39,890 nucleotides of DNA from a virus, in IMG/VR virus record IMGVR_UViG_3300031857_000481, positions 1-39,890 of that record, one strand, 5' to 3'. The notes under the pieces are model-generated. The model ran no database searches and was not told where the DNA came from. It saw only the letters and a program-made list of their open reading frames with translations. Shown here in pieces: positions 6,708 to 36,349 of this stretch. Positions within the stretch are counted from its first letter, which is position 1; each line of letters opens with the position of its first letter. The position numbers were made by a program, and so were the translations under genes.

Positions 6708-7058
6708 TTAGGCCACCTGTCGGATGCTGAACGGAATGGCGCGGTCGGTGCCTTGGTTCTTCTTCAGCGTCATCGTCCAGCCATGCAGCAACAGCAGCGA
6801 GGCGGTGACGTAGATCGGCTCGGTGGTCTGTGCGCCGCTGAAGATGACCTCTTGCACCACGCGCTGGGTGCTGCTGCTCTGCGTCTTCTCGTAGATGCGC
6901 AGCCGGTACTCCTCGGTGCTGGTCAGCGCATTGAGGTCGATGAACAACTGGTAGATGCCGTCAGTTGTCTGAGCGGACAGCGTGGTGGACGCGCTGGGCA
7001 GGTCGTACTCCGTGGTGCCGACCGTGGGGTTGCCGTTGAAGGCTTCAGAGATAGCCAT
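6708..7058 (-). CDS. Putative structural protein
   Basis: A 116-residue beta-rich protein (SEAFNGNPTVGTTEYDLPSA at the start, YQLFIDLNAL and EEYRLRIYEK in the middle, RAIPFSIRQVA at the end). I know this type of small protein next to glycine-rich adhesin genes in podoviruses, but not its function. Its start overlaps the stop of the glycine-rich gene by one base, suggesting co-translation and perhaps a partner in the same fibre. Confidence 0.65.
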   Translation of the reverse strand: MAISEAFNGNPTVGTTEYDLPSASTTLSAQTTDGIYQLFIDLNALTSTEEYRLRIYEKTQSSSTQRVVQEVIFSGAQTTEPIYVTASLLLLHGWTMTLKKNQGTDRAIPFSIRQVA

Positions 7059-7975
7059 CAGTCGGCACTCCAGTAGGTAATCTGGACGTAGCCGTTGCCG
7101 CCATCGCCGCCCTTGCGCCGTGCCGTGCCGGAGCCGCCACCACCGCCGCCGCCTGCTCCGTAGTCGCCAGAGCCTGCGCTGGTGCCTACTGCGTCACCAC
7201 CGCCGCCAGCGGGAGATACGCCGGAGAAAAAGCTGGGAGTCCCCCTGCCACCGCCACCCATTGATACCCCGCCAGCGGTGGTGCCGGTGGCAACCGTGAA
7301 CCAGTTGGCCTCGGATGTAGGAAAAAAGCCGTACTGGGTATACGAGTAATAAGTGAACCCACCATTGGCGCCAGCAGCACCGGAGGCTTTGCCGCCGCCG
7401 CCCTGACTGCCGATGTTGATGTAATAAAAAAGAAAGTAAAAACCGGTTTGTTCGTTACTAACTCCTTGCTGGCCATCAGAACCGGCTGTGCTATTGTTGC
7501 CGCCGGTTGTTGCAACGGCAGAGGTTGATGATGTCGGCGGGGAAAGATAGGAACCCCCGCCGCGCAACTCCAGTGTGTTGTTGAACGTCAGGAAATTAGG
7601 CAACAACCCCGCCACCGTCGTGTTGCCGCCGTTGGCATATGTGCCGTCTGCCGTGGCCGCGCCCGTACCGCCAGCGCCAATGGTTACGGTCAGACTTGCC
7701 CCGGGGACCACCTTGGCGCGGTAATCCCGACAAACCATCCCCGAAGTCCCACCAGCACCGCCTCCCGCTGACAAGGCGCTGGCTTGGTAGGCCCCCGCCG
7801 CGCCGGATTGCCCCGCGCCGCACCCGTCAATCATCAAGTCCACCACCCCCGCAGGCACCGTCCACGTCCACGGCCCATTGGTGCTGGTGGCGTCTACGAC
7901 ACCGTCGGTTTTAACGCCCGTGCCGCGAATGAACTCGACAACGTGCTGACGAATGACAGGTCCGCCGAGGCTCAT
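7058..7975 (-). CDS. Glycine-rich adhesin-like fibre-tip protein
   Basis: A 305-residue protein. After an N-terminal beta segment with WTWTVPAGVVDLMIDGCGAG, most of the chain consists of Gly-rich stretches (GGGAGG, GGGGKASGAAGANGG, GGGGRG, GAGGGGGGG) separated by non-Gly loops, two of them strongly aromatic: NEQTGFYFLFYYIN (about residues 175-190) and FTYYSYTQYGFF (about 207-220). This alternation resembles the gp38 adhesins of T-even phages, whose Gly-rich motifs form a scaffold and whose intervening loops contact the host receptor; sequence kinship is not claimed. The DNA for the aromatic loops is a local AT-rich patch (7320-7550). Most likely the receptor-contact tip. Confidence 0.7.
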   Translation of the reverse strand: MSLGGPVIRQHVVEFIRGTGVKTDGVVDATSTNGPWTWTVPAGVVDLMIDGCGAGQSGAAGAYQASALSAGGGAGGTSGMVCRDYRAKVVPGASLTVTIGAGGTGAATADGTYANGGNTTVAGLLPNFLTFNNTLELRGGGSYLSPPTSSTSAVATTGGNNSTAGSDGQQGVSNEQTGFYFLFYYINIGSQGGGGKASGAAGANGGFTYYSYTQYGFFPTSEANWFTVATGTTAGGVSMGGGGRGTPSFFSGVSPAGGGGDAVGTSAGSGDYGAGGGGGGGSGTARRKGGDGGNGYVQITYWSAD

Positions 7976-7977
7976 GG

Positions 7978-8367
7978 TCAGGCGCTCAGTGCCGTGTAGG
8001 TCAACGACGAGCAGGACACCGTGTCGCCGCTGGCCACGGTCAGGCCGTTGGTCATGTTGATGTCGCTGCCGCTCGCGGCCACCGCGCAGTGGATGACCAC
8101 CGTGCCGGCGCCGGTTTGCAGCGTCGCCGTGGCAACCGGGCTGGCGTTGCCGGTGGCGTTGGTGTCCGAAGTGATGGCGTTGGCCGTGGCGGTGCCGGTG
8201 CTGGCTGCGCCGAACGCGGTCGCGCTCATGGAGAGCGTGGCCACCGCCGTACCAGGTGCGCTGACTGTGCCGCTCAGGCGAAACACCAGCTTGGCGGTGC
8301 CGCCAAGCAGGTTGGTGACGGCGTCAGTCGCCGCGTTCCGTGCTGCTGTACTGTGTGTGACGGCCAT
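7978..8367 (-). CDS. Small virion protein
   Basis: A 129-residue Ala/Thr-rich protein beginning MAVTHSTAARNAATDAVTNLL, with an AFGAAxxG motif and repeated short beta strands. This N-terminus is common among phage head or tail decoration-like proteins; a proven function is not known to me. Its ribosome binding site (AAGGAG seven bases before ATG) lies inside the upstream 57-aa gene, which it overlaps by 44 bases. Confidence 0.7.
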   Translation of the reverse strand: MAVTHSTAARNAATDAVTNLLGGTAKLVFRLSGTVSAPGTAVATLSMSATAFGAASTGTATANAITSDTNATGNASPVATATLQTGAGTVVIHCAVAASGSDINMTNGLTVASGDTVSCSSLTYTALSA

Positions 8368-8497
8368 CGCTCAACTCCTTCAGCTTTTCCTCATCCAAGT
8401 AGCCGACCAATTCGACTTCTTCGACTTTACCTGTTTCCTTACGGGTGATCTGCACCGTGAAGCGCAGTTCACCTGGCTGCCCGTTGAGGCTGATCAT
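8324..8497 (-). CDS. Small hypothetical protein (57 aa)
   Basis: A 57-residue ORF, MISLNGQPGELRFTVQITRK followed by ETGKVEEVELVGY and KLKELSDGRH. The ATG at 8497 shares four bases with the stop of the preceding gene (ATGA) and the 3' end overlaps the next gene by 44 bases, so it fits tightly into the operon. The sequence reads as a genuine small protein and resembles a short family I have seen near podovirus portal genes. Function unknown. Confidence 0.7.
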   Translation of the reverse strand: MISLNGQPGELRFTVQITRKETGKVEEVELVGYLDEEKLKELSDGRHTQYSSTERGD

Positions 8498-8859
8498 GCG
8501 AGGAACTTCAACTTGTACAGGGACGACAGGTACTGCCCAATGATCTCGTCGATGATGTTTTGCAGCGGGGTGTCGGTCTTCTCGCAGACCTTGTACCGCA
8601 TGGCTTCGACATCTTTCAGCGAGTCTTCCAGAAACTCGACGATATTGCCTGTTTTCTTGGCGCTCATCAAGGTGATCGGCCCGATCAGCCCATGCCGGCC
8701 TTGGTAGGCTTCGGCAAACTTGTCCGTCAGGTCAACAATCCCGTCGTAGAACTCGTTCAGCGCCGAGTGCTTGGCAAACGACCGGGTGTTCAGATGCACG
8801 CTGTGGGCCACATCACGGGCCAGAAACAGCGTGCCTACGAAGTCGGCACAGGAACTCAT
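8494..8859 (-). CDS. DUF5856-like protein
   Basis: A 121-residue all-helical protein containing ARDVAHSVHLNTRSFAKH, ALNEFYDGIVDLTDKFAEAY and QGRHGLIG. The set of His and acidic residues on the first two helices (HLNTRSFAKH; EFYDGIVDL) recalls four-helix ferritin/Dps-like bundles; I recognise the family as DUF5856, whose role is unknown. The gene follows the portal gene with an ATGA-type overlap (8856-8859). If it binds metal it could protect packaged DNA, but that is speculation. Confidence 0.65.
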   Translation of the reverse strand: MSSCADFVGTLFLARDVAHSVHLNTRSFAKHSALNEFYDGIVDLTDKFAEAYQGRHGLIGPITLMSAKKTGNIVEFLEDSLKDVEAMRYKVCEKTDTPLQNIIDEIIGQYLSSLYKLKFLA

Positions 8860-13385: not shown

Positions 13386-13836
13386 CCGTCAGTTCCATCA
13401 CGTTGGGGTGTTGCCGCGTGACCTTGGCCTGCGGCACTTCTTCGACCATCTGGCTGGCGCTGACGCGGGCGTTGGCCTGCTCCAGCGCCAAGGTGATGCT
13501 GATCGCCTGCGCGGTGTCTACCTGAATCTGCTGCTTGGCCACCCAATCGTGACGGTGCTTCAACACCTCAAGCGCGGCCTTCACGTCGCCGCCGCGCCCT
13601 GCTTCATATAGCGTGTTGGCCATTTCCGCCTCGGCGTCGGCGTACCCCTTCAGGATCGCCATGTCCGCAATCGGGTCCATCTGGCGCAGCCGATTGAGTT
13701 CAATAGGCAACAGGTTGGCTCTGGTCGCCAACGTCTCACCTTTCATCCCCAGACGCGCTGCTGCGTACAAACGCTCCAGCACAGCTTCGGTGGCCTTTAT
13801 CTCGCGCGGCACCAGCGGTAGTGATTTGAACGTCAT
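13360..13836 (-). CDS. Terminase small subunit
   Basis: A 158-residue helical protein. Residues about 12-60 (REIKATEAVLERLYAAARLG, then KGETLATRANLLPIELNRLRQMD) form a helix-turn-helix-like DNA-recognition region, and the C-terminal half is helical (oligomerisation). The call rests on this pattern and on its place directly before the large subunit. It is the first gene of the long minus-strand late block; an AT-rich stretch 45-100 bases upstream may hold its promoter. No strong ribosome binding site precedes the ATG at 13836. Confidence 0.8.
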   Translation of the reverse strand: MTFKSLPLVPREIKATEAVLERLYAAARLGMKGETLATRANLLPIELNRLRQMDPIADMAILKGYADAEAEMANTLYEAGRGGDVKAALEVLKHRHDWVAKQQIQVDTAQAISITLALEQANARVSASQMVEEVPQAKVTRQHPNVMELTDAAATVHR

Positions 13837-13879
13837 GCGCGGATGCTACCGCAATTTGTGTGACGGGTGGCGGTGGGCG

Positions 13880-13935
13880 TTTTGCAAAAAATTTTGCAAA
13901 TAAAAAATTGTTTGTGGCCCCTTCGTTTTTGATCA
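13880..13935. promoter_or_regulatory. AT-rich block with repeated TTTTGCAAA
   Basis: In an otherwise GC-rich genome this stretch is dominated by A and T. TTTTGCAAA occurs at 13880-13888 and 13892-13900, 12 bases apart, followed by ATAAAAAATTG. It lies just upstream of the small terminase gene. It could be an UP-element-like promoter region for late transcription or a DNA-unwinding element; no clear -35/-10 pair could be fixed. Confidence 0.45.
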
Positions 13936-13982
13936 CTCAGCCCGCCGGCCCTCCCCTCCCCCCGTCTGGCCGCGAGCCGCCA

Positions 13983-14051
13983 CCGGGTGGTGCTGGGCAC
14001 CGCCCCCGCAGTCGGGGCGCCGTGCGCCCAGGCGCCGGGTGGTGCTGGGCA
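13983..14051. repeat. 17-bp direct repeat pair
   Basis: CCGGGTGGTGCTGGGCA occurs at 13983-13999 and again at 14035-14051, 52 bases apart (about five helical turns), with no mismatch. The second copy runs into the inverted repeat at 14047-14095. Function unknown. Confidence 0.75.
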
Positions 14052-14095
14052 TACCCGGCAGGGTAGCGGTGCGGGGTCATGCGGCGGGTATGCCC
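14047..14095. repeat. 10-bp inverted repeat
   Basis: GGGCATACCC (14047-14056) is the exact reverse complement of GGGTATGCCC (14086-14095), with 29 bases between. It could be a paired protein-binding site or a cruciform/RNA stem. No coding sequence covers it convincingly. Confidence 0.7.
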
Positions 14096-14130
14096 GGTGC
14101 TGCCCGGGCATGGGGCAGGGGGGGTAGGCC

Positions 14131-14304
14131 GGGTAGTTCGGGTAGTCCGGGCACTACCCCCGGAATCGATGCGCCATAGAAAACGCACGTACACGCGCCA
14201 GCGTACCGGCCACGCATAAAAGCCCGAACCGACTTCGATTTTCTTATCAAAACACTACCCAGCAATACCCCCACAGAGGAAGATCTTGCATCCCCTCACT
14301 ACCC
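14131..14304. repeat. Cluster of ACTACCC / GGGTAGT words
   Basis: The 7-mer appears at 14131-14137 and 14140-14146 (as GGGTAGT) and at 14153-14159, 14254-14260 and 14298-14304 (as ACTACCC). ACTACC without the last C appears once more at 14409-14414, inside the dyad arm. Five exact copies in 174 bases suggest binding sites for one regulator, in both orientations. Confidence 0.5.
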
Positions 14305-14386
14305 GGCCCGGGCGCCCCGCACCGCCCCGCGCCCCTACTGGCGCCGCCACCAAGTGAAAGACCCCACATCACGCTCGGGATTGTCT

Positions 14387-14413
14387 GTAGTGTCTCCAAT
14401 TGTGAGACACTAC
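14387..14413. promoter_or_regulatory. Perfect 10-bp dyad, operator candidate
   Basis: GTAGTGTCTC (14387-14396) and GAGACACTAC (14404-14413) are exact reverse complements separated by seven bases (CAATTGT). The 27-base dyad ends 25 bases before the first ATG of the plus-strand accessory block, where a repressor or activator site, or a 5'-UTR hairpin, would be expected. No T-run follows, so it is not a standard terminator. Confidence 0.65.
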
Positions 14414-14438: not shown

Positions 14439-14519
14439 ATGAAGACCCGCCCCATCGACTACGTTCTCGCCATCGCCATCGGCGCGGCGCTTGCGTTTCT
14501 TATCGCCTACAGCATCTAA
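14439..14519 (+). CDS. Tiny membrane peptide (26 aa)
   Basis: A 26-residue ORF, MKTRPIDYVLAIAIGAALAF followed by LIAYSI. A short basic N-terminus leads into one hydrophobic helix that could span the membrane. CGGAGAA lies eight bases before the ATG, and the next gene follows in 10 bases with its own AAGGGGA site. It is the first gene after the dyad. Function unknown; the clear ribosome binding site and membrane-helix composition are the support. Confidence 0.6.
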   Translation: MKTRPIDYVLAIAIGAALAFLIAYSI

Positions 14520-14529
14520 GGGGACCATC

Positions 14530-15309
14530 ATGCCGAACACTAACTCACTCATCGTTTACGAAGGCCCCAGCACCATCGATGGCGCGCCTATCGTCGTGAT
14601 CCTCACGGGTCTGGATCAATCCAGCGCCAACGGGAAGACCGGTAACTTAGTCCAGTCTTTCATCATCCGCGCGGACGTTGAGCCCCATGATGCGCTGAAA
14701 ACCGGCGATGACGCTAGCGTCTGCGGTATGTGCCCGCACCGTCCCCTTATCGTGCGCATGCTGGCCAAGGCCGGCATCACGTCATCACCATGCTATGTGC
14801 GCGTTGGGGAATCCGTCCTATCAGTATTCCGCGCATACCGTCGCGGATCCTATGCGCGCGCATCATCGATCGCACAAGTAGCCGCAGCGCTGCGCGGGCG
14901 CCGTTTGCGTCTCGGCACCTATGGGGATCCCGCGGCCGCGCCTGTAGGTTTGTGGCAGCTACTGGTGTCCCTTGCATCGGGCCACGTCGGTTACACCCAC
15001 CAGTGGCAAGCGCACGGGTTCGACGCGCGCGCATGGTCCCCCCTTGTTATGGCATCGGCCGATAGCGCTGCCGAGGCTGCGCAAGCTACCGCCATGGGGC
15101 TGCGCTACTTCCGCGTGAGCATCGGGGTCGACCGTCAACCCCTCGAGGTGACATGCCCCGCCAGCGCTGAGGGCGGACGCAAAGCGCAATGCTCCGATTG
15201 CATGCTCTGCGGAGGCACCAGCAAGGCCGCGCGCAGCATCGTCATTGCCGACCACGCATCGGGGCATGAGAGCCGGGCGCGCGTGATTCCCCTTCACCTT
15301 GCCGCTTGA
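14530..15309 (+). CDS. Cys-rich conserved phage protein, DUF7227-like
   Basis: A 259-residue protein. I recognise the pattern SANGKTGNLVQSFIIR, VCGMCPHRPL near residue 70, CYVRVGESVLSVFRAYRRG near 90-110, and a C-terminal cluster CPAS, CSDCMLCGG, then IVIADH. I associate this with a family labelled DUF7227 in phages and plasmids; the label is from memory. Several Cys pairs plus His imply zinc binding or possibly a metal cluster. No catalytic fold is obvious. Start: ATG 14530 with AAGGGGA upstream, rather than an upstream in-frame codon overlapping the membrane peptide. It is the largest gene of the accessory block and probably its key player. Confidence 0.75.
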   Translation: MPNTNSLIVYEGPSTIDGAPIVVILTGLDQSSANGKTGNLVQSFIIRADVEPHDALKTGDDASVCGMCPHRPLIVRMLAKAGITSSPCYVRVGESVLSVFRAYRRGSYARASSIAQVAAALRGRRLRLGTYGDPAAAPVGLWQLLVSLASGHVGYTHQWQAHGFDARAWSPLVMASADSAAEAAQATAMGLRYFRVSIGVDRQPLEVTCPASAEGGRKAQCSDCMLCGGTSKAARSIVIADHASGHESRARVIPLHLAA

Positions 15310-15320
15310 ATGGACACGTT

Positions 15321-15518
15321 ATGGATCAGGATAGCCCTATCTGGCGCGCACCATGCGCAAATCACCCGGAATTGTCCGTCACGGTATCGCGCACCGTCAT
15401 CGGCACCTATCGGACATTGTTCCGTGACGATGATGCCGATGCGGTAATCGAAACCCGTATCTTCAATTCGGCCGATCGCGCGAACGACTATGCGCGCATG
15501 TTGATTGATCAGGATTAA
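15321..15518 (+). CDS. Small hypothetical protein (65 aa)
   Basis: A 65-residue protein (MDQDSPIWRAPCANHPELSV, IGTYRTLFRDDDADAVIETR, ADRANDYARMLIDQD). The alternation of strands and a final helix suggests a small alpha/beta domain. The ATG at 15321 has a weak GGA upstream; a TTG at 15306 is the alternative and would overlap the previous stop. Unknown family. Confidence 0.6.
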   Translation: MDQDSPIWRAPCANHPELSVTVSRTVIGTYRTLFRDDDADAVIETRIFNSADRANDYARMLIDQD

Positions 15519-15532
15519 TCGGAGAACCTATC

Positions 15533-15886
15533 ATGCCCTTCCCTGCTCGTTTCCCCGGCCGGTGCGCGCGCACCGGCGCCGCTATCCGCCCTGGTGACAC
15601 TATCGCATCCGCCGGCCGCGGCCGGTATACCCTAATTGGCCGGGCGCCCCGGCCGGCGCCGGAACCCGTCGACCCGGTCGACGCCGATATCGCGCTGACG
15701 GAGTCTATCGACCCCGGTACCGCGGCCGATGACCCCGATGCGGCCGCATCGGCCGGCCGCTATCTCCGTCAATCGATCGCGCGCGGAGTGTCCGATATCT
15801 GGCGCACGTCAACCGGGCGAGAGTACTACCGCAACCGCCGGGGGCTCTGCGAGGATGCCCCGTGCTGCGGCTGTTGCAATGCATAG
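15533..15886 (+). CDS. Cys-rich hypothetical protein
   Basis: A 117-residue protein. The N-terminus (RCARTGAAIRPGDTIASAGRG) looks like half of a zinc knuckle, the middle is Pro/Asp/Ala-rich, and the C-terminus GREYYRNRRGLCEDAPCCGCCNA is strongly Cys-rich. C-terminal CxxxxCCGCC segments of this kind occur in small phage proteins of unknown function. CGGAGAACCTATC precedes the ATG. The middle of the gene is a dense run of palindromic GC-rich words. Confidence 0.65.
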   Translation: MPFPARFPGRCARTGAAIRPGDTIASAGRGRYTLIGRAPRPAPEPVDPVDADIALTESIDPGTAADDPDAAASAGRYLRQSIARGVSDIWRTSTGREYYRNRRGLCEDAPCCGCCNA

Positions 15887-15896
15887 GGGGTTGACC

Positions 15897-16070
15897 ATGC
15901 AAACCGTAACCCTTCGAACGGGCGCGCGCGTGCTTGCGCGCATGGTAGCCGGTCATTTGTACGCCTACCATTACATGAGCCGCGCGCAAGCCGAAAAGCG
16001 CGCCGCGACGATACCGGGCGCCGTGGTGATTCGCCCGACCCGCAGCTACTTTGTGGCGGTGCCAGCATGA
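15897..16070 (+). CDS. Small basic hypothetical protein (57 aa)
   Basis: A 57-residue protein (MQTVTLRTGARVLARMVAGH, YHYMSRAQAEKRAA, IRPTRSYFVAVPA). I chose the ATG at 15897, ten bases after the preceding stop, over longer frames that overlap the Cys-rich gene. A short family of this type (AYHYMSRAQAEKRA) may exist in phages and plasmids but I cannot name it. Confidence 0.6.
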   Translation: MQTVTLRTGARVLARMVAGHLYAYHYMSRAQAEKRAATIPGAVVIRPTRSYFVAVPA

Positions 16071-16216
16071 GCGCCAGCAACCCCATGCACCCCGCCACCC
16101 CGCGCCCCGCCCCGTGGCCATTCCCGGCCAGGCTACCGGGCGCGGATCTGCCCCCCGACCCCCGGCGCCAGCCCGCGCCCCGTCAACCCCTGCCGGCCAC
16201 CCCGGCGCCCTTTTGA
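16067..16216 (+). CDS. Proline-rich peptide (49 aa)
   Basis: A 49-residue ORF starting in an ATGA overlap with the preceding gene and followed after 15 bases by the next gene with GGAGAACCAAC. About a third of residues are Pro (MSASNPMHPATPRPAPWPFP; RRQPAPRQPLPATPAPF). The composition could come from GC bias, but the coupling and exact fit between neighbours support translation. It would be unstructured. Confidence 0.5.
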   Translation: MSASNPMHPATPRPAPWPFPARLPGADLPPDPRRQPAPRQPLPATPAPF

Positions 16217-16231
16217 ATCAGGAGAACCAAC

Positions 16232-16672
16232 ATGAACAAACGCGAACGCGAGCGGCTTACCGCTCAGGAAAATACCCTTGTCTCTCTCGGCTTTACCGCC
16301 AGCGAAGCCGACACCCTGCGGCGCATCAGCCGCGCCCTGCGCCGCTGGCATGAATTGGAGTGTGGGACCGATGCGGGATGCATCGAACGCGACGATGCGA
16401 CGGGCAGACCCCGATTCATCAGCTACACCGGGCGGCGCTGGCCGGTGGCCGACCGTGAACGCGGCGCCCTGCGGCGCCTCGGGCGCATCGTCGGGCTGCG
16501 CAATACGCGCGTATGGGCCGCATCGGACGCGCACGCCGTGCACGTCCACGCCGTGCACCCTTACGTTCAAACGGACCCGCGCGGCGCGGCGCTTTACATC
16601 CTGCGCCCTGGTGACGTGCCGCAGGGGATCAAGCCGGAATCCTGTTACACCCGCGGCATTTGCGTCTACTAA
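16232..16672 (+). CDS. Conserved hypothetical phage/plasmid protein
   Basis: A 146-residue protein. N-terminal helices (RERERLTAQENTLVSLGF, ADTLRRISRALRRWHELECG) precede a C-terminal beta domain with VHPYVQTDPRGAALYILRPG and ending SCYTRGICVY. The QTDPRGxALYxLRPGD...YxRGIxVY ending is a pattern I know from many phage and plasmid proteins without a function. GGAGAACC precedes the ATG. Confidence 0.7.
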   Translation: MNKRERERLTAQENTLVSLGFTASEADTLRRISRALRRWHELECGTDAGCIERDDATGRPRFISYTGRRWPVADRERGALRRLGRIVGLRNTRVWAASDAHAVHVHAVHPYVQTDPRGAALYILRPGDVPQGIKPESCYTRGICVY

Positions 16673-16687
16673 TCGGAGACTGACACC

Positions 16688-17005
16688 ATGACAACCCTGA
16701 ACATCACCCGCCCCGACGGTACCCGCTCGGCCTACACCAACATCTCCCCCGCGGCCTGGGCTGCGGTGCAGGCCGTCAAGCCGCACCGCACTAGGTGGGC
16801 ACGCAGTGAAAAGCGCTTGTTTCCAAAACAGGCCATGAGCACTGCCGATTATGTGCGCCAGTACTTCGCGCTGAACACTGGCCGACGGGGCAAGATCACC
16901 GCATATGCGGATCATCTAAACCACCTGGCGCTGTTTCAGCCGCTGAATGAAAAGCCGTGGCACTGGGCGCCCGACACGGTGGAAATTGAAATGTTGGAGG
17001 GTTGA
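16688..17005 (+). CDS. Hypothetical protein (105 aa)
   Basis: A 105-residue protein: an N-terminal strand pair (TLNITRPDGTRSAY), a central charged helical segment (RSEKRLFPKQAMSTADYVRQ) and a C-terminus rich in Trp/Pro (PLNEKPWHWAPDTVEIEML). CGGAGAC precedes the ATG. No family recognised. Its stop is two bases from the next start. Confidence 0.62.
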   Translation: MTTLNITRPDGTRSAYTNISPAAWAAVQAVKPHRTRWARSEKRLFPKQAMSTADYVRQYFALNTGRRGKITAYADHLNHLALFQPLNEKPWHWAPDTVEIEMLEG

Positions 17006-17007
17006 CC

Positions 17008-17220
17008 GTGAACGACGACGACGACGACACCTACACCGACGATAGCCCGCCCGACACCCCGGACCCGTATGACCCCGGGCCGGACCCGTATGACCCCGGG
17101 CCGGACCCGTATGACCCCGGGCCGGACCCGGCCCTCGGCGTGCCGCATCCGGACCCCCGCGTGCGGGACCGCGCAGCCGACGCTGCGTTGGATCAATGGC
17201 TCAACCGGCGCGGCCTATGA
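17008..17220 (+). CDS. Asp/Pro repeat protein (70 aa)
   Basis: A very acidic 70-residue protein: a run of Asp after the start, then three PDPYDPG repeats, then a short helical C-terminus (RDRAADAALDQWLNRRGL). I chose the GTG at 17008 because GGAGGG stands six bases upstream; a TTG two codons earlier is the alternative. The repeats come from an exact 21-bp tandem repeat. The C-terminal helix is the only part likely to fold. Function unknown; DNA mimicry is conceivable from charge but unsupported. Confidence 0.6.
   Translation: MNDDDDDTYTDDSPPDTPDPYDPGPDPYDPGPDPYDPGPDPALGVPHPDPRVRDRAADAALDQWLNRRGL
17059..17130 (+). repeat. Three exact 21-bp tandem repeats
   Basis: Units at 17059-17079, 17080-17100 and 17101-17121 are identical, with a 9-base partial fourth copy to 17130. 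They encode PDPYDPG. Perfect identity suggests recent slippage expansion. Confidence 0.9.
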
Positions 17221-17279
17221 TCATTGCAGCCCTTGTCGCCCTCGCCGTTCTCGCGCTCGCGGTCCTGCTGGATCTGTAA
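17217..17279 (+). CDS. Tiny membrane peptide (20 aa)
   Basis: A 20-residue ORF whose ATG overlaps the preceding stop (ATGA). It is almost entirely Ala/Val/Leu/Ile (MIIAALVALAVLALAVLLDL), long enough for one membrane helix. It ends the accessory block, mirroring the 26-aa membrane peptide that opens it. The coupling is the main support. Confidence 0.5.
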   Translation: MIIAALVALAVLALAVLLDL

Positions 17280-17293
17280 CCCTTCCCTGAGTG

Positions 17294-17313
17294 CCCGCCT
17301 CCCGGCGGGTTTT
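17294..17313 (+). terminator. Rho-independent terminator 1
   Basis: CCCGCC (17294-17299), loop TCCC and GGCGGG (17304-17309) form a perfect 6-bp stem followed by TTTT. It lies 14 bases after the last plus-strand accessory gene. Confidence 0.75.
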
Positions 17314-17348
17314 GCGCCCCGACAGCTAACGCTGCCGGGGCGCCTTTT
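17314..17348 (+). terminator. Rho-independent terminator 2
   Basis: A longer stem begins GCGCCCCG (17314-17321) and closes with CGGGGCGC (17336-17343), with one mismatch inside and loop TAAC, followed by C and TTTT. It directly follows terminator 1 and touches the stop codon of the convergent primase gene, insulating the two opposed operons. Confidence 0.75.
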
Positions 17349-19681
17349 CATTTGACTAGCGATAGGCCACCGGCGGCGCCTGCCGCCAGCGCGTCGCGGG
17401 CCTCGGCCTTACTGCCGGTCCAGCCAGGCGCCGCGAAGATATGCGCCTTGGTCTTGTAGGTTTTGCTATGGCATAGCCCGAGATCCACCCAGCGAGCCTC
17501 CTGTAGCGCGTGAATCACCGCGGCGGGTATCACGCGGGTACCGGCGGGGGCGCGGGCCTGCACCAGATCGCAGAGCTTGCCCCACGGGGCGCCGACGACG
17601 GGCCGCGCGAACTCCCCGACCCGGTTGGACACTTCGGACAACAGCCAATCTTCCACAATCGACCGGGACGCCCCCGCCATCAGGGTTTTGGCCTCGGTTA
17701 GGGGCGGGGGCGCCCCAGGCGCGAACGCGGTCACATCACGCGCGTGCAGGTAAGCCGCGCACTGTTCAAACCCGCCGCCTTGCAGCCAGCCCCAAAACGC
17801 GCGGCCCTCGGCCTCGGTCATAGGTGCCGCGTCGGTCCACAGCACAAACCAGCGGCGATCATCGTAGCTCAAGCTGATGGCCCCACGCTCATTCGAGAAC
17901 GCGACGACAGAACACCGGTTCGGCGCCTCATACGGGTGCAGGCCCTTGCGCTCGATTACCAAGTGCTCAGGGGGCGCGGCGATGATGGATTTGAGGCGGT
18001 TTTCCAGCCCCCGCCGGTCGGACGCATCGGCCTGCCGCAGTTCGTTGATCACGACAACTTCAGCCTCCAGGTGATACCCCCACTGGGTTTGCAGCCTATC
18101 GTTTTCCAGCAGCGCGACGTTGGACCGGGATTCCCCGCCGACCGCCCAAAAGAACGGCGCCCAGGCCGAATCCTTCCCCGCGCCTTGCACGCCAGCGTGC
18201 AGGATCGCGTGATTGATCTTGACACGCGGGTGCTGGACTTTCCAGGCCATCACGTTCAGGACGTGCTCACGCTCAAGCCGGTTCGGTATGACCCGCTCCA
18301 AGTGCGCCAGCCACGGCAGCGGGACGACACTGGACGCGGGCGCTGCGGGCCGCGCGTCGCGCCAGCGGTTGACGAAGACCGAGCCGCTGCGCGACACCAG
18401 CATATCGTCGCCGGCGGCGTAGGTCATGCCGGCCACCGACCGGGCGCCGCAGGCGATGCGGTTCTCATCAAAATAGTATGACGCGGGGATCTGGCGGCGC
18501 TTGCCGGCCTGCGTCAGGTGGACGCTGAAGCACGGGACATGCCGATAGACCGCATCGAACACCCGGCGCGACAGTTCCCGCCGCTCGATCAGATCGAAGA
18601 AGCTATCGTCGGCCTCGACGTAGGCGTAGCGCGTGAACCACTCCTTCTGCGCCAGGCGCCCCGCCTCCTTCCGTTCGACCTCGGCCACCACGGCGGCGGC
18701 CTCGGCGGCCAGCGCGGGCGTCGGCACCAGGTGCGCCAGCGCCCCGCCCAGCGCAGCCGATAGCAGCTCCTCGCGCAGGCCGGGCCTGCGGCTGGGGCCG
18801 CCCTGCGAAGCCACCCAATCGAGGAACCGCTGGCTGTCCAGATCGAGGCAGTGCGAGTGCAGGCAGCAGAAGGCCCGCCCGCTGGGCAGGTAGCGGCCCT
18901 CGGGCGAGCCATCGGTATGCTGGTCGGCCTGCGGGCAATGCACGCCCATCCAGCCCTCGCTGTTGGGCCGGCTGTAGACCATCCCTTGGTCGGACAACCA
19001 GGCGGCCACGTCATCGCCGCCATCGTCGGCCAGGCGCAGCGGGCGTGGGCCCCCGCCATCGGTCGGCCCCGGGGTCACGCCCAGCGCGGCGCAGACCTCG
19101 GCCAGCGTGAACTCGCGGTCGGGGTGGAACTCCACCAGCCGCGAGGCGAACCCGTTGCGGCCAGGCTTCAGGTTGATCGACCCGGGCAGGCGGAAGTTTC
19201 TGACCGGGTTACAGGCGCCCGGGTCGGTGTAGCCCGCCGCGGCGATGGCCGTGATCGCCGCGGCGAAGTCGGCCTTCGGCGGCTGCTCGCTGAAGGCATA
19301 GCCCCACTGGTAATTGCCCTCGCTCGTCTCCATCACCCAGGTCGGCGGCAGCGGCGGCTGCTGGGACTTGGTGCCGATGTCGTCCAGCACCATCACCAGG
19401 ACGTACTCGCAGGCGGCGGCGCTGGCGGACGGCTTGCCATCCATGAACCGCTCGCTGATGAAGGACGCGGTGTTGCCGTACCAGGCTTCCCCCTTGCGCG
19501 GGCTGCGTGACGGCAGAAACGACGGCCACGTCGCTTTTATCGCCCCGTCCGCGTGGACTTGGATCTGGCCCTTGTCGTCCAGGCGCGGCACCTGCCGCAC
19601 GATCAGAGCCGTCTCGCCATCCTCGGCGGGCGCCAGGCTTGCGAACCACTGAACAAATTTGGTATAGTGTGCGTCGATCAA
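17348..19681 (-). CDS. Primase-helicase (DUF5906 type)
   Basis: A 777-residue replication protein. The N-terminal third looks like a primase-polymerase: YVLVMVLDDIGTK (Asp 100-101) and a RNFRLPGSINLK motif near 161-171. A zinc-binding segment follows (HCPQADQH at 248-255, CCLHSHC at 272-278). The C-terminal half is a DUF5906-type superfamily 3-like helicase with Walker A GVQGAGKDS at 497-505 and downstream VVVINELRQ and VIERKG. This resembles the primase-helicase-polymerase fusions of the NrS-1 type. The start is TTG, chosen because GAGGAG lies upstream and no in-frame ATG occurs before residue 80. It is the last gene of the replication operon. Confidence 0.85.
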   Translation of the reverse strand: MIDAHYTKFVQWFASLAPAEDGETALIVRQVPRLDDKGQIQVHADGAIKATWPSFLPSRSPRKGEAWYGNTASFISERFMDGKPSASAAACEYVLVMVLDDIGTKSQQPPLPPTWVMETSEGNYQWGYAFSEQPPKADFAAAITAIAAAGYTDPGACNPVRNFRLPGSINLKPGRNGFASRLVEFHPDREFTLAEVCAALGVTPGPTDGGGPRPLRLADDGGDDVAAWLSDQGMVYSRPNSEGWMGVHCPQADQHTDGSPEGRYLPSGRAFCCLHSHCLDLDSQRFLDWVASQGGPSRRPGLREELLSAALGGALAHLVPTPALAAEAAAVVAEVERKEAGRLAQKEWFTRYAYVEADDSFFDLIERRELSRRVFDAVYRHVPCFSVHLTQAGKRRQIPASYYFDENRIACGARSVAGMTYAAGDDMLVSRSGSVFVNRWRDARPAAPASSVVPLPWLAHLERVIPNRLEREHVLNVMAWKVQHPRVKINHAILHAGVQGAGKDSAWAPFFWAVGGESRSNVALLENDRLQTQWGYHLEAEVVVINELRQADASDRRGLENRLKSIIAAPPEHLVIERKGLHPYEAPNRCSVVAFSNERGAISLSYDDRRWFVLWTDAAPMTEAEGRAFWGWLQGGGFEQCAAYLHARDVTAFAPGAPPPLTEAKTLMAGASRSIVEDWLLSEVSNRVGEFARPVVGAPWGKLCDLVQARAPAGTRVIPAAVIHALQEARWVDLGLCHSKTYKTKAHIFAAPGWTGSKAEARDALAAGAAGGLSLVK

Positions 19682-33563: not shown

Positions 33564-34028
33564 TTAGCCAATACGCCAATTAACGCCGTCGCTGTATACC
33601 GGCACAGTATTACTACCTCCACCTACAACAACAGACGCAAATGTCGTAACTGTTGCATCAGATACAAAAGCTCTTGATCCCGCGTCGATAAGCGCAGCGG
33701 AAGGCAAATTAGCTACGACGACAGGGGGTATCGCAGAATTAGCCCCCGGAATATTGTCTTTTGTCCAAACCGCAACGCCAACCGAAGTTTGCAACACAAA
33801 CTTATACACATACGCCGTGTTCAGCCAAATCTGCTCGGGCACGCGGCCAGCGGCGTCCAGCACCACCGGGTTGGCGTTGGCCGTAGCACCTGAGCTGGAC
33901 GTGTACGTCGTCACCGGCGTGGTCGTACCGGCCTCGTAGGTGTACAGCAGACCGCCCGACAGCGGGTTGCCGTTGTCGTCAAAGAACTGCCAACCGGCGC
34001 CTGCGAGAAGGGAGAGGGAAACGGCCAT
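33564..34028 (-). CDS. Tail-fibre-like protein with collar-type N-terminus
   Basis: A 154-residue protein. WQFFDDNGNPLSGGLLYTYE, TTTPVTTYTSSSGAT and NPVVLDAAGRVPEQIWL form a module widely seen at the start of phage tail fibres and spikes; the end (SAALIDAGSRAFVSDATVTT and VPVYSDGVNWRIG) is a second common surface module. The DNA for the C-terminal half (33564-33800) is clearly more AT-rich than that for the first half, so the distal part was probably exchanged. It could be a short fibre or a base for another receptor protein. Confidence 0.72.
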   Translation of the reverse strand: MAVSLSLLAGAGWQFFDDNGNPLSGGLLYTYEAGTTTPVTTYTSSSGATANANPVVLDAAGRVPEQIWLNTAYVYKFVLQTSVGVAVWTKDNIPGANSAIPPVVVANLPSAALIDAGSRAFVSDATVTTFASVVVGGGSNTVPVYSDGVNWRIG

Positions 34029-34037
34029 GATGAATCC

Positions 34038-34826
34038 TCAATCTTGATACGCGCTGATGTTATCCGTCACGGTCAGGATGACGCTGGGGATCGCGGGTAC
34101 GGGCGCGGCAGCGGCCTGAGCAAGTATCTGCACGGCGGTATCGTTCACAGACCACATTAGTTCACAGTAGTCGCCAGCGCGCAACTGCTCGACGTAGTTC
34201 CACGACGTTACCAGTTCACCGTCCGTTCCCTTAAGCCGCACTTGGCCGGCTGAGTTTGCTACGTCCACGCCGTTGATGCGCAACCAAATGTAGACCAGAT
34301 GACTGCCGCCGCTAGTGTTGTCCAACTGCGCGCTGAACTGCAAGTCGTACACGCCGTCTTTGGCCACATATACCCGCGACGTGGGTGAACCGATGTAGAC
34401 GCCGTTGGACAGAACGGTTGAGTTCAGCGTGATGCCGTAGGCGGTGTTGATGGCCGCTGCAGTCTGCGTCGTCGTGTCGTAGAACGTGCCGTAGGCGCGG
34501 TCGCGCAGCTGCGGCGTGTAGATGGGCGCTGCTGCCAGCGCCTCGACCTGCTTGGTCAGTTCGGCCCACTGGTCAACGGTCACCAGGCGCTGCGTCAGCG
34601 CCTCCTGCTCAACGACGGCCAAGCTGTTTTGCAGGCTGGTCAACGCGGCGTAAGCGTCGGGCTGGTGCTGGAGGTCTTCCAGGCTGGCCACGCTCTGGCC
34701 GCTGCCGGTGAGGAAGAACAGGTTGAGGAAGAACCGATACCACTCCCGCGAGATCAGGCCCGTGCGGTCGTCCACCAACGGCACGCGCGGCGGCGTGATG
34801 TTGGTGAGGTTCGGCGGGCTGGTCAT
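34038..34826 (-). CDS. Tail protein with C1q/TNF-like jelly-roll C-terminus
   Basis: A 262-residue protein. The N-terminus (PRVPLVDDRTGLISREWYRF, FLNLFFLTG) is the conserved start of a podovirus tail family and is followed by a predicted coiled coil (about residues 60-100). Residues 140-262 form a beta domain (DGVYDLQFSAQLDNTSGGSH; YIWLRINGVDVANSAGQVRL; YCELMWSVNDTAVQIL) like the trimeric jelly-roll heads of C1q/TNF type. Coiled coil plus globular head suggests a tail needle or knob analogous to P22 gp26-type proteins, although this is by analogy. Confidence 0.68.
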   Translation of the reverse strand: MTSPPNLTNITPPRVPLVDDRTGLISREWYRFFLNLFFLTGSGQSVASLEDLQHQPDAYAALTSLQNSLAVVEQEALTQRLVTVDQWAELTKQVEALAAAPIYTPQLRDRAYGTFYDTTTQTAAAINTAYGITLNSTVLSNGVYIGSPTSRVYVAKDGVYDLQFSAQLDNTSGGSHLVYIWLRINGVDVANSAGQVRLKGTDGELVTSWNYVEQLRAGDYCELMWSVNDTAVQILAQAAAAPVPAIPSVILTVTDNISAYQD

Positions 34827-36349
34827 GCGTTGGTGCCGCTGATGACCAGTTCAGCACCCATGATGGTGACCTTGACGGGGTCGGTGCCGCTGATCTCGTA
34901 GACCCGGTCGCGCAGCTTCAGCGTCATGCCCAGACGGCGCCAGAAGACGCGCCGGCCCCACTGACCGATGCGGCCCATCTCGGCCCAATGCTCGTTGGAC
35001 CATGTGTGGCCGCCGTCGTCTGACCAGCGCAGCATGACCGCGGGGTTGGCCCCTACGACCGTGGCCACGGACACCAGAATCGGCACGTCGTCCTCGGTGA
35101 TGATCTCGTCGCCGGTTTCGGCCAGCAGCGTCTCCAGCGGGTCGAAAGCGTCGATGCCGTTTAGCCCGACGCCCGACTCGCAGTCCAGTTGAAGCGTGTG
35201 GTGCGCGGTGCGCTTGAGGTTGTTCTGGCCGGTCGGCAGCGCCCGCCACGACCGCAGCCACCGCTGCTCTTGGCCGTTGTCAGCGTAGACCTCCAGATCG
35301 AAGGCGTACAGATTGCCGCTCTCGTAGTCCCCGACGACGATCTCGTTGCCGTAGGACATCTGGCAATTGCTGCGGTGCCGCGTAAACGAGTTGCCCGTCC
35401 AGCCGGCGCGTTCGTGCCAGGCGCTGGTGGAGACATCGTAGACCCACGTCGTGTTGGCCGAGGGGAAGACCAGCACATAGAAGGCGTGGCCGTCCTGCTG
35501 GTAGGTGTAGCCGATGGCGTCGGACAGGTCGCCGTACTGCTGGATCTGCCACTCCACCGCGTGCGTGCTGATGCGCTGGCCGGTGTAGCCGTTGGCCCGG
35601 TAGACGATGCCGCGGCCACGGGCGTCAGCGCCCAGCCAGAACAGGCCGTTGTCCAGCTTGGCCACCGAGTACGCGGCTGCGCAGCCGATCTCGTTGAACG
35701 CGCCTTGGATGCGTTGCAGCGGGAAGTCCGCAGCGCCGGCGTCGTACCAGACCTCGACCGAGTTGGTGCCGTACAGCCACACCTCGCGGTGGTCAACGAT
35801 CAGGCTCACCAGCCCGTCAGGAGCGCCCTCGGCGCTGGCGAAGTCTAGCGGGTCTACGGACGTGCCATCCAGCAGGCTGGTGATCCACAGGCGCTGGCTG
35901 TTGGGCTCGTTGAAGACGAAGTAGCCGTCGATGTAGCCGACCGTCACCGCGCCGGGGTAGTCAGGGTCGGTGATCTGGGCGAAGACGTTGGTGCTGGCGT
36001 TGTAGATGTAGCCGTCTGGGTTGCAGGCGATGAACAACTGCACGCCGTTGTCCGACATGCTGACCGGGCCGCTGCCGGTCACGCTGCCCAGCAGCGTGGC
36101 CGTCCAGTTGGTGTCGATCTTGTACAGCGCGCTGCCGCTGACGACGTAGCCGTACCCGCCGAACTGCCACAGCCCACGGATGGGGCCAGCGCCGACCGTG
36201 GCTAGCAGCCGCAGGCCAGGAGCGCGGTTCAGGAACGCGGGCTCTTTGCCGCCCTCGGGCACGATCTCGGCAAAGAGATTGACGCAGCGGTTGTCCGCAG
36301 CGTTGACGCTGCGGGCGACATACGACGACCCGAGGATCGGCGTCTTCAT
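34823..36349 (-). CDS. Packaged DNA stabilisation protein, P22 gp10-like
   Basis: A 508-residue protein matching the P22 gp10 type: MKTPILGSSYVARSVNAADN, RCVNLFAEIVPEGGKEPAFL, RAPGLRLLATVG and later WHERAGWTGNSFTRHRSN, LRWSDDGGHTW, GRRVFWRRLGM. Repeated ~50-residue beta units suggest a beta-propeller-like fold. It closes the head after packaging and links the gp4-like adaptor to the tail needle. CGGAG lies before the ATG at 36349. The opposite-strand HNH gene is inserted just upstream. Confidence 0.87.
   Translation of the reverse strand: MKTPILGSSYVARSVNAADNRCVNLFAEIVPEGGKEPAFLNRAPGLRLLATVGAGPIRGLWQFGGYGYVVSGSALYKIDTNWTATLLGSVTGSGPVSMSDNGVQLFIACNPDGYIYNASTNVFAQITDPDYPGAVTVGYIDGYFVFNEPNSQRLWITSLLDGTSVDPLDFASAEGAPDGLVSLIVDHREVWLYGTNSVEVWYDAGAADFPLQRIQGAFNEIGCAAAYSVAKLDNGLFWLGADARGRGIVYRANGYTGQRISTHAVEWQIQQYGDLSDAIGYTYQQDGHAFYVLVFPSANTTWVYDVSTSAWHERAGWTGNSFTRHRSNCQMSYGNEIVVGDYESGNLYAFDLEVYADNGQEQRWLRSWRALPTGQNNLKRTAHHTLQLDCESGVGLNGIDAFDPLETLLAETGDEIITEDDVPILVSVATVVGANPAVMLRWSDDGGHTWSNEHWAEMGRIGQWGRRVFWRRLGMTLKLRDRVYEISGTDPVKVTIMGAELVISGTNA

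What the first reader, a model, noticed from the sequence alone, without database searches (positions are those of the whole stretch)
14439..17279. Uncharacterised accessory block bracketed by two tiny membrane peptides
Eleven tightly packed plus-strand genes, none with an assigned function: a 259-aa Cys-rich DUF7227-like protein, a Cys-rich protein with a CCGCC tail, Pro-rich and Asp/Pro-repeat peptides, a 146-aa conserved protein, with a 26-aa membrane peptide first and a 20-aa membrane peptide last. It has its own upstream dyad and two tandem terminators. A compact self-contained cassette like this may be a host-takeover, exclusion or anti-defence system. That function is a guess; the architecture is seen.
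Basis: partly seen in the sequence, partly recalled or inferred. Interest (0 to 1): 0.66.

Follow-up and report, generated by a model that had tools for sequence, protein, structure and literature searches.

The report
Phage slot with three-cysteine enzyme pair
This block is an exchangeable set of small genes, probably made early in infection, in a water-borne phage; at its heart is a widespread pair, a protein that looks like a radical-forming iron-sulphur enzyme beside a small protein with an unusual cysteine-rich tail, which may be an undescribed way for phages to alter their host.

Summary
The architecture is real: ten (not eleven) tightly packed plus-strand genes, a unique perfect dyad upstream and hairpins downstream, under purifying selection. 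It is not one self-contained system. It is the variable cargo slot between the terminase and primase genes of a P22-like podophage group. A sibling phage (terminase 100% identical) keeps both membrane peptides, p146, p105 and p70b, but has another gene where the window has p259-p70a-p117-p57.

The new result is a conserved pair inside the slot. p259 belongs to the DUF7227/GP88 superfamily: three invariant cysteines after strand 1, a YGDP motif ending strand 2, six parallel strands and a second 4-Cys site, a layout like radical-SAM enzymes. p117 ends in a near-invariant tail, YRNxxGRCEDAPCCGCC. In viral contigs, 91 of 116 such tails sit beside a member of one of five DUF7227/GP88 subfamilies, often in unrelated phages; none of 49 control loci had one. 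In a separate survey of 30 complete slots, tails occurred in 6 of 11 slots with such a gene and 0 of 19 without.

Best reading: an early module of a radical-SAM-like enzyme and a Cys-tail partner, perhaps its substrate. Enzyme chemistry and substrate role are inferred.

The parts
14387..14413 (.). perfect 10-bp dyad with 7-nt spacer, candidate operator or processing/attenuation site
   Evidence: unique in window, 0 expected; folds at -15.5 kcal/mol, z -4.7; left arm and most of right arm kept in L059
14439..14519 (+). p26, 26-aa single-helix membrane peptide, first gene of the slot
   Evidence: relatives in 19 of 108 loci searched, L001 (self) included; dN/dS 0.11-0.31; 92% identical in sibling L059
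14530..15309 (+). p259, three-cysteine protein of the DUF7227/GP88 superfamily, radical-SAM-like layout
   Evidence: phrog_2554 E 7e-66; hhalign to DUF7227 family E 7e-14; model pLDDT 92; C65/C68/C88 in 48 of 48 relatives, C209 in 46, C221/C224/C227 in 47; dN/dS about 0.1
15321..15518 (+). p70a, small acidic protein (ATG at 15321 preferred to TTG at 15306)
   Evidence: homology in L003/L009 covers 64 codons from the ATG frame, dN/dS 0.22
15533..15886 (+). p117, tail protein ending GREYYRNRRGLCEDAPCCGCCNA
   Evidence: tail matches phrog_5664/2656; 91 of 116 C-terminal tails in IMG/VR lie next to a p259-superfamily gene; dN/dS 0.11-0.16
15848..15886 (+). CEDAPCCGCC tail at the extreme C-terminus of p117
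   Evidence: 61 of 64 non-redundant tail proteins stop 2-3 residues after CCGC; flanking N 57/64, G 60/64
15897..16070 (+). p57, small basic protein
   Evidence: 93% identical in L031/L034, dN/dS 0.15; absent from L059
16067..16216 (+). p49, Pro-rich peptide found beside p259 or p146 in relatives
   Evidence: tblastn hits in 55 of 108 loci, composition-biased; dN/dS 0.38-0.45
16232..16672 (+). p146, conserved RRWHELECG / QxDPRG family, independent of p259
   Evidence: 51 IMG/VR loci, none in 50,697 phage records; model pLDDT 91 without a fold match
16688..17005 (+). p105, accessory protein
   Evidence: relatives in 14 of 108 loci; dN/dS 0.17-0.24
17008..17220 (+). p70b, Asp/Pro-repeat protein (3 copies of a 21-nt unit)
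   Evidence: repeat found; counterpart in L059, dN/dS 0.16
17217..17279 (+). p20, 20-aa membrane peptide, last gene, overlapping the p70b stop
   Evidence: positional counterpart in L059; otherwise only in L002, the same phage
17293..17343 (.). two hairpins closing the block, the second strong in both directions
   Evidence: fold energies; both kept in L059

Best explanation
The block is the cargo slot, probably expressed early, between the terminase genes and the primase gene of a P22-like podophage group. Its ends (dyad, p26, p20, hairpins) are backbone and its middle is exchanged. The main cargo here is a two-gene module. p259 is a divergent radical-SAM-like enzyme: C65, C68 and C88 would hold one iron-sulphur cluster for S-adenosylmethionine, the YGDP motif ending strand 2 would sit where the SAM-contacting GGEP motif of radical-SAM enzymes sits, and C209/C221/C224/C227 would hold a second metal site. 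p117 is its dedicated partner, whose C-terminal CEDAPCCGCC tail is either modified by the enzyme or supplies or holds metal for it. Shown: the slot, its exchange, the superfamily, the cysteine pattern, and the linkage of enzyme and tail. Inferred: early expression, cluster binding, SAM chemistry, the tail as substrate or metal carrier, and an effect on the host.
For: Slot: all 84 loci with terminase, primase and a superfamily gene have that gene between them (74 F1, i.e. p259-like; 9 F2; 1 F5b; window and contigs fetched twice included). L059, with identical terminase, has replaced p259-p117. Near relatives MW202483 and OR003940 carry other genes in the same slot, OR003940 an F2 gene. Superfamily: p259 to DUF7227 E 7e-14, p259 to GP88-type F3/F4 E 2e-5; Pfam names F2 DUF7227 and F3-F5 GP88. 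Layout: six strands with the Cys loop after strand 1 and YGDP ending strand 2. Of 998 chains aligned, the four best are radical-SAM enzymes (viperin Z 3.7, TYW1 3.5, SkfB 3.1, CteB 3.1). GP88 also matches DUF5131 proteins, and a DUF5131 protein matches NCBIfam 'radical SAM mobile pair protein A' (E 7e-28, below its cut-off). Module: 91 of 116 tails adjacent, 53 of these 91 in loci without similarity to this phage's core genes; 46 of 64 non-redundant clusters versus 0 of 49 control loci. Tails within 1.8 kb downstream in 17 of 42 and 25 of 52 F1 loci, 25 of 70 F5, 8 of 68 F2, and nowhere else in those loci. Slot survey: 6 of 11 versus 0 of 19.
Against: Foldseek found no PDB match at E <= 0.001; VIA Z values are far below the level that means relatedness by itself. 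The cysteine spacing is not the canonical CX3CX2C. No profile link of p259 to DUF5131 or F5, and none to any PDB sequence. Tails are absent beside p259 relatives in bacterial genomes (0 of 29) and isolate phages (0 of 7), and 23 of 116 tails have no superfamily gene in the held DNA (16 of these with at least 1.8 kb upstream), so neither gene strictly needs the other. F2-F5 were first noticed beside tails, so the forward count is not fully independent. Early expression is inferred from position only.
Confidence: 0.5

Rival explanations
1. p259 and its relatives are zinc or iron-sulphur proteins with no radical chemistry: a metal-stabilised early protein that binds a host factor. The partial-barrel look is convergent.
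For: Low structural Z values; non-canonical spacing, CX2C then C 19 residues later, with loop length varying among members; no direct profile link to DUF5131.
Against: Strand order, position of the Cys loop and of YGDP, and the rank of radical-SAM enzymes in the aligned list; GP88 to DUF5131 to a radical-SAM NCBIfam model.
Confidence: 0.3
2. The tail protein is an independent early effector. It and the three-Cys genes are neighbours only because both are favoured cargo in the same kind of early operon.
For: 23 of 116 tails have no superfamily gene nearby; tails occur on unrelated short scaffolds such as the 38-aa peptides of L249, L290 and L297; p259 relatives in bacterial genomes and isolates lack a tail.
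Against: Fixed order and strand, median gap of 86 nt, five or more subfamilies swapping in front of the tail, many in phages unrelated to this one, tails only in slots with such a gene, 0 of 49 controls.
Confidence: 0.3
3. One reading: the whole block is a single self-contained host-takeover, exclusion or anti-defence system.
For: Conserved brackets p26/p20, dyad and hairpins; compact gene order.
Against: p259 and p146 almost never occur together (2 of 133 and 2 of 45); L059 replaces four genes of the middle; slots of relatives hold different genes.
Confidence: 0.05

Closest known systems
Pfam DUF7227 (PF23872) and PHROG 2554
   Same: p259 is in PHROG 2554 (E 7e-66), which also takes the DUF7227 family; hhalign p259-DUF7227 E 7e-14 over 192 columns, with the second Cys site aligned.
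   Different: p259 scores below Pfam's cut-off, has an N-terminal hairpin, and spaces its three cysteines differently.
Pfam GP88 (PF17338)
   Same: Three-Cys loop followed by a GD/SD strand and a YTH/YTK-like strand; GP88 members F3-F5 take p259's place beside the same tail.
   Different: Direct profile link only to F3/F4 (76%, E 2e-5), none to F5, which also lacks the second Cys site.
DUF5131 (Gp37/Gp68, PF07505) with three-Cys-motif partner TcmP (TIGR04474)
   Same: A three-Cys protein followed by a dedicated partner gene; GP88 matches DUF5131 proteins; L228 shows the DUF5131-TcmP pair.
   Different: TcmP is a large protein, not a tail peptide; DUF5131/TcmP matches PADLOC candidate defence families, p259 does not; no direct profile link to p259.
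Radical-SAM peptide maturases with an extra cluster (SkfB, CteB) and viperin/TYW1
   Same: Top of the PDB second look; enzyme next to a small protein with a Cys-rich C-terminus.
   Different: Weak structural scores, other Cys spacing, and a tail that is more conserved than the rest of the partner, the reverse of the usual peptide precursor (recalled).

Membership tests
DUF7227/GP88 superfamily (PHROG 2554) | profile similarity over most of the length | tested here: met
   phrog_2554 E 7e-66; hhalign to DUF7227 members E 7e-14, to GP88-type F3/F4 E 2e-5
Pfam DUF7227 as curated | Pfam gathering score for DUF7227 | tested here: not met
   16.9 bits against 27, so not a member of the Pfam family as curated
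Radical SAM superfamily | (beta-alpha)6 partial barrel with the cluster loop after strand 1 | tested here: inconclusive
   strand order and Cys loop fit in a pLDDT-92 model; four best of 998 aligned chains are radical-SAM enzymes, but Z at most 3.7 and no Foldseek hit at E <= 0.001
Radical SAM superfamily | three cysteines for one 4Fe-4S cluster, canonically CX3CX2C | tested here: inconclusive
   three invariant Cys in 48 of 48, but spacing CX2C-X19-C in p259; other subfamilies differ again
Radical SAM superfamily | binding of a 4Fe-4S cluster and cleavage of SAM | not testable with these tools
   needs the purified protein
Radical-SAM RiPP maturase with precursor | adjacent small precursor with a modifiable C-terminal core | tested here: inconclusive
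   tail gene adjacent in 91 of 116 tail loci, absent in many others; core unusually conserved
Radical-SAM RiPP maturase with precursor | leader-binding (RRE-like) domain or export/protease genes | not tested
   no dedicated search was made; none seen among the ten genes
Known anti-defence or defence system | match to a described system | tested here: not met
   no PADLOC match for p259, p117, p105, p146 or for 112 slot proteins of relatives; one AcrF31-like protein in a relative's slot

The most novel reading that the evidence does not exclude
Phages carry their own peptide-modifying system for the start of infection: interchangeable DUF7227/GP88 radical-SAM enzymes install crosslinks on the CEDAPCCGCC tail of a small partner protein, and the modified tail acts on a host target. 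This would be a RiPP-like host-takeover module spread through many aquatic phage lineages.
Probability: 0.2. Interest if true: 0.88.

Novelty: new variant of a known kind. Interest (0 to 1): 0.62.

Why it matters
DUF7227 and GP88 proteins are among the larger unnamed protein groups in phages: each of three IMG/VR scans stopped at its 600-stretch limit with over 580 relatives. Tying them into one superfamily, giving them a radical-SAM-like layout with named residues, and showing that they trade places in front of one conserved cysteine tail turns 'hypothetical early protein' into a testable enzyme-partner pair. The slot between terminase and primase also gives a place to look for further early host-takeover and anti-defence genes.

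Tried and rejected
Rejected: the block as one co-inherited system; p146 as a partner of p259; other Cys-rich C-termini as substitutes for the tail in loci without it (only one-letter variants in L163 and L468, the rest looked like chance frames); another GP88-type gene near tails without one (51 of 89 neighbouring ORFs scanned, no GP88, DUF7227 or radical-SAM family).

Led nowhere: fold matches for p146; sequence relatives in the PDB for five profiles; defence libraries; direct profile link of p259 to DUF5131 and to F5. No DUF5131, GP88 or DUF7227 protein is listed among the PDB matches, which says nothing, since no sequence relative was found there.

Papers: searches. No paper in that library holds DUF7227 or any of the tail letters, PF17338, PF23872, phrog2554 or 'gene product 88 domain'. 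Of PMC11118758 and PMC12445080 I saw passages only; the others only as search listings with the start of their abstracts. PMC11118758 links rSAM-modified peptides of prokaryotes to phage interactions; the passages I saw name none encoded by phages. The canonical radical-SAM motifs, the GGEP motif and the usual RiPP leader/core pattern are recalled, not from a call.
Full report
What is there. The window is a virus record of 39,890 bases; a script joining its ends shows the capsid ORF running across them, so it is probably a complete, circularly mapped genome. Core genes are P22-like: portal, scaffold, coat, head closure, terminase, with DNA polymerase, primase, exonuclease and helicase. The block lies between the terminase genes (minus strand, ending at 13836) and the convergent primase gene (17348-19681, minus). 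It has ten plus-strand genes, a perfect dyad upstream and two hairpins downstream. All nine genes compared show purifying selection (dN/dS 0.09-0.45).

A variable slot, not one cassette. p259 relatives were found in 148 of 50,697 phage records, p146 in none. p259 and p146 co-occur in 2 of 133 p259 loci with 3 kb held downstream and in 2 of 45 p146 loci with 3 kb held upstream; one of the two, L002, is the same phage at 100% over 14,107 bases. Locus L059 is a sibling: terminase 100%, primase 98% identical. Its slot keeps the dyad (right arm changed), p26, p146, p105, p70b, p20 and both hairpins, but in place of p259-p70a-p117-p57 it has one gene of another family, and one more gene stands before p26. 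Two phage genomes with the closest coat protein have the same slot with different genes: MW202483 a cytosine methyltransferase and a DnaA-like protein, OR003940 a DUF7227 gene of subfamily F2 with a small membrane peptide near the start. In all 84 loci where terminase, primase and a superfamily gene could be placed, the gene lies between the two (the window and some contigs fetched twice are included).

A survey of the slot not chosen by p259 or by the tail. A scan with the terminase alone gave 80 loci; 30 held both terminase and primase. Of these 30, 11 carry a superfamily gene (5 F1, 3 F3, 2 F5b, 1 F2) and 6 of the 11 also the tail; none of the 19 others has the tail; one has p146. Of 112 slot proteins of 85 aa or more from these 30 slots, Pfam names 6 DNA polymerase III beta-like, 5 GP88, 5 DUF7227, 4 DUF7249, 3 TreK, and one each of AcrF31, NinX and DnaA_C among others; none matches PADLOC. 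This fits an early, host-directed cargo site. p259 relatives also sit at the early end of several isolate genomes, e.g. the second or third gene from the end of the T7-like phages jiawei and S2B, and near the right end of cluster A and related actinophages; in Bradyrhizobium phage BDU-MI-1 and Klebsiella phage KpS11 they lie in runs of small genes without a clear end position.

What p259 is. PHROG 2554 (E 7e-66). It aligns with DUF7227 members over 192 columns (E 7e-14) and more weakly with GP88-type F3/F4 (76%, E 2e-5), not with F5. In 48 sequences (p259 and 47 relatives) C65, C68 and C88 are invariant, C209 is kept in 46 and C221/C224/C227 in 47. The model (mean pLDDT 92.1, 48 sequences) has strands at 40-47, 125-131, 151-156, 174-177, 193-197 and 236-240, with the first three cysteines after the first of these, YGDP (131-134) ending the second, and the four other cysteines between the fifth and sixth. 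That order is the one of radical-SAM enzymes (recalled). The numbers are weak: no Foldseek match at E <= 0.001. In the second look the four best chains, and six of the best seven, are radical-SAM enzymes (viperin, TYW1, SkfB, CteB, RlmN, SpeY; Z 3.7 to 2.8). If the seven radical-SAM rows among the 50 shown were placed at random, four in the top four would have probability 1.5e-4, but those rows were chosen by Foldseek and Z, so this is only a guide. By sequence, the GP88 model reaches proteins above its cut-off in 7 of 149 genomes, and the proteins read there carry the DUF5131 three-Cys pattern; a DUF5131 protein matches NCBIfam 'radical SAM mobile pair protein A' at E 7e-28, below the curated cut-off. 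F3/F4 align with that DUF5131/GP88-hit set at 66%, E 6e-5. Direct comparison of p259 with it gave nothing.

The tail and its partners. p117 ends in GREYYRNRRGLCEDAPCCGCCNA. A scan of IMG/VR for the DNA of C-x-DAPCCGC stopped at 120 stretches; 119 loci are held, and in 116 the motif stands at the C-terminus. Its N-terminal scaffolds vary, while flanking residues not used in the search are conserved: N 57, G 60 and R 53 of 64 non-redundant proteins, and 61 of 64 end 2-3 residues later. Of the 116, 83 have a superfamily gene within 1.8 kb upstream on the same strand, 8 just downstream, 2 elsewhere, 23 none in the held DNA (16 with at least 1.8 kb upstream). Families next to the tail: F2 28, F5 and F5b 23, F1 21, F4 12, F3 7. 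Of the 91 adjacent pairs, 53 are in loci without similarity to this phage's terminase, primase, polymerase, portal, coat or helicase (short contigs could hide some). After clustering at 80%, 46 of 64 are adjacent, against 0 of 49 control loci chosen by p146 (L082, which has both p146 and a p259 relative, was left out of that control set beforehand). F2-F5 were noticed beside tails, so the reverse test matters: within 1.8 kb downstream the tail is found in 17 of 42 near and 25 of 52 wide F1 loci, 8 of 68 F2 and 25 of 70 F5 loci, never elsewhere in them; but in 0 of 29 bacterial-genome loci and 0 of 7 isolates (loci with under 1.2 kb held downstream were dropped). The F2 and F5 query sets included sequences from tail loci.

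Mechanism. The simplest reading that covers the swapping of subfamilies in front of one tail is that all of them do the same thing with it. Given the layout, that is most likely radical-SAM chemistry on, or metal exchange with, the five-cysteine tail. The extra 4-Cys site in F1-F4 recalls maturases with an auxiliary cluster. Absence of the tail beside other members means the enzyme can also work without it, perhaps on another target. Nothing here tests chemistry or expression.

The rest of the block. p146 has a confident model (pLDDT 91) without a fold match and a stretch between about residues 92 and 108 that varies strongly in length among relatives. p49 recurs after either p117 or p146. p26 and p20 are backbone. 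I have no functional evidence for these.

Verdict. The finding worth keeping is the enzyme-and-tail module and its slot.

Noticed in passing
L246 (OR003940) 34018-34158 and 34980-35660: Phage DSL-LC05, a near relative, has a 46-aa membrane peptide and a DUF7227 gene in the same slot, without the tail.
   Followed up: partly
L249, L290, L297: 38-40-aa peptides MKSILDILDDMVISGI...CGCEDAPCCGCNL carry the same motif on another scaffold, with no superfamily gene found.
   Followed up: no
L214, L216, L218, L224 around 7000-8740: Nostocales chromosomes carry a p259 relative with recurring neighbours (e.g. ...RKSSTPxxQPIDxSILGEYA... in three of them), perhaps a mobile element.
   Followed up: no
L208 7830-10010: A 727-aa open frame joins a p259 relative to a long Lys-rich C-terminal extension.
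   Followed up: no
window 13837-14386: About 550 bases without a clear gene between terminase and the dyad, with GGGTAGT/ACTACCC repeats; candidate packaging or control region.
   Followed up: no
slots of L523-L600: One AcrF31-like, three TreK-like and six DNA polymerase III beta-like proteins lie in the same slot of relatives.
   Followed up: no
window 1 and 39890: The coat protein ORF continues across the joined ends, so the record is a circular map cut inside that gene.
   Followed up: yes
L228 1492-3533: A DUF5131 gene followed by TcmP, both matching PADLOC candidate families PDC-M30.
   Followed up: no
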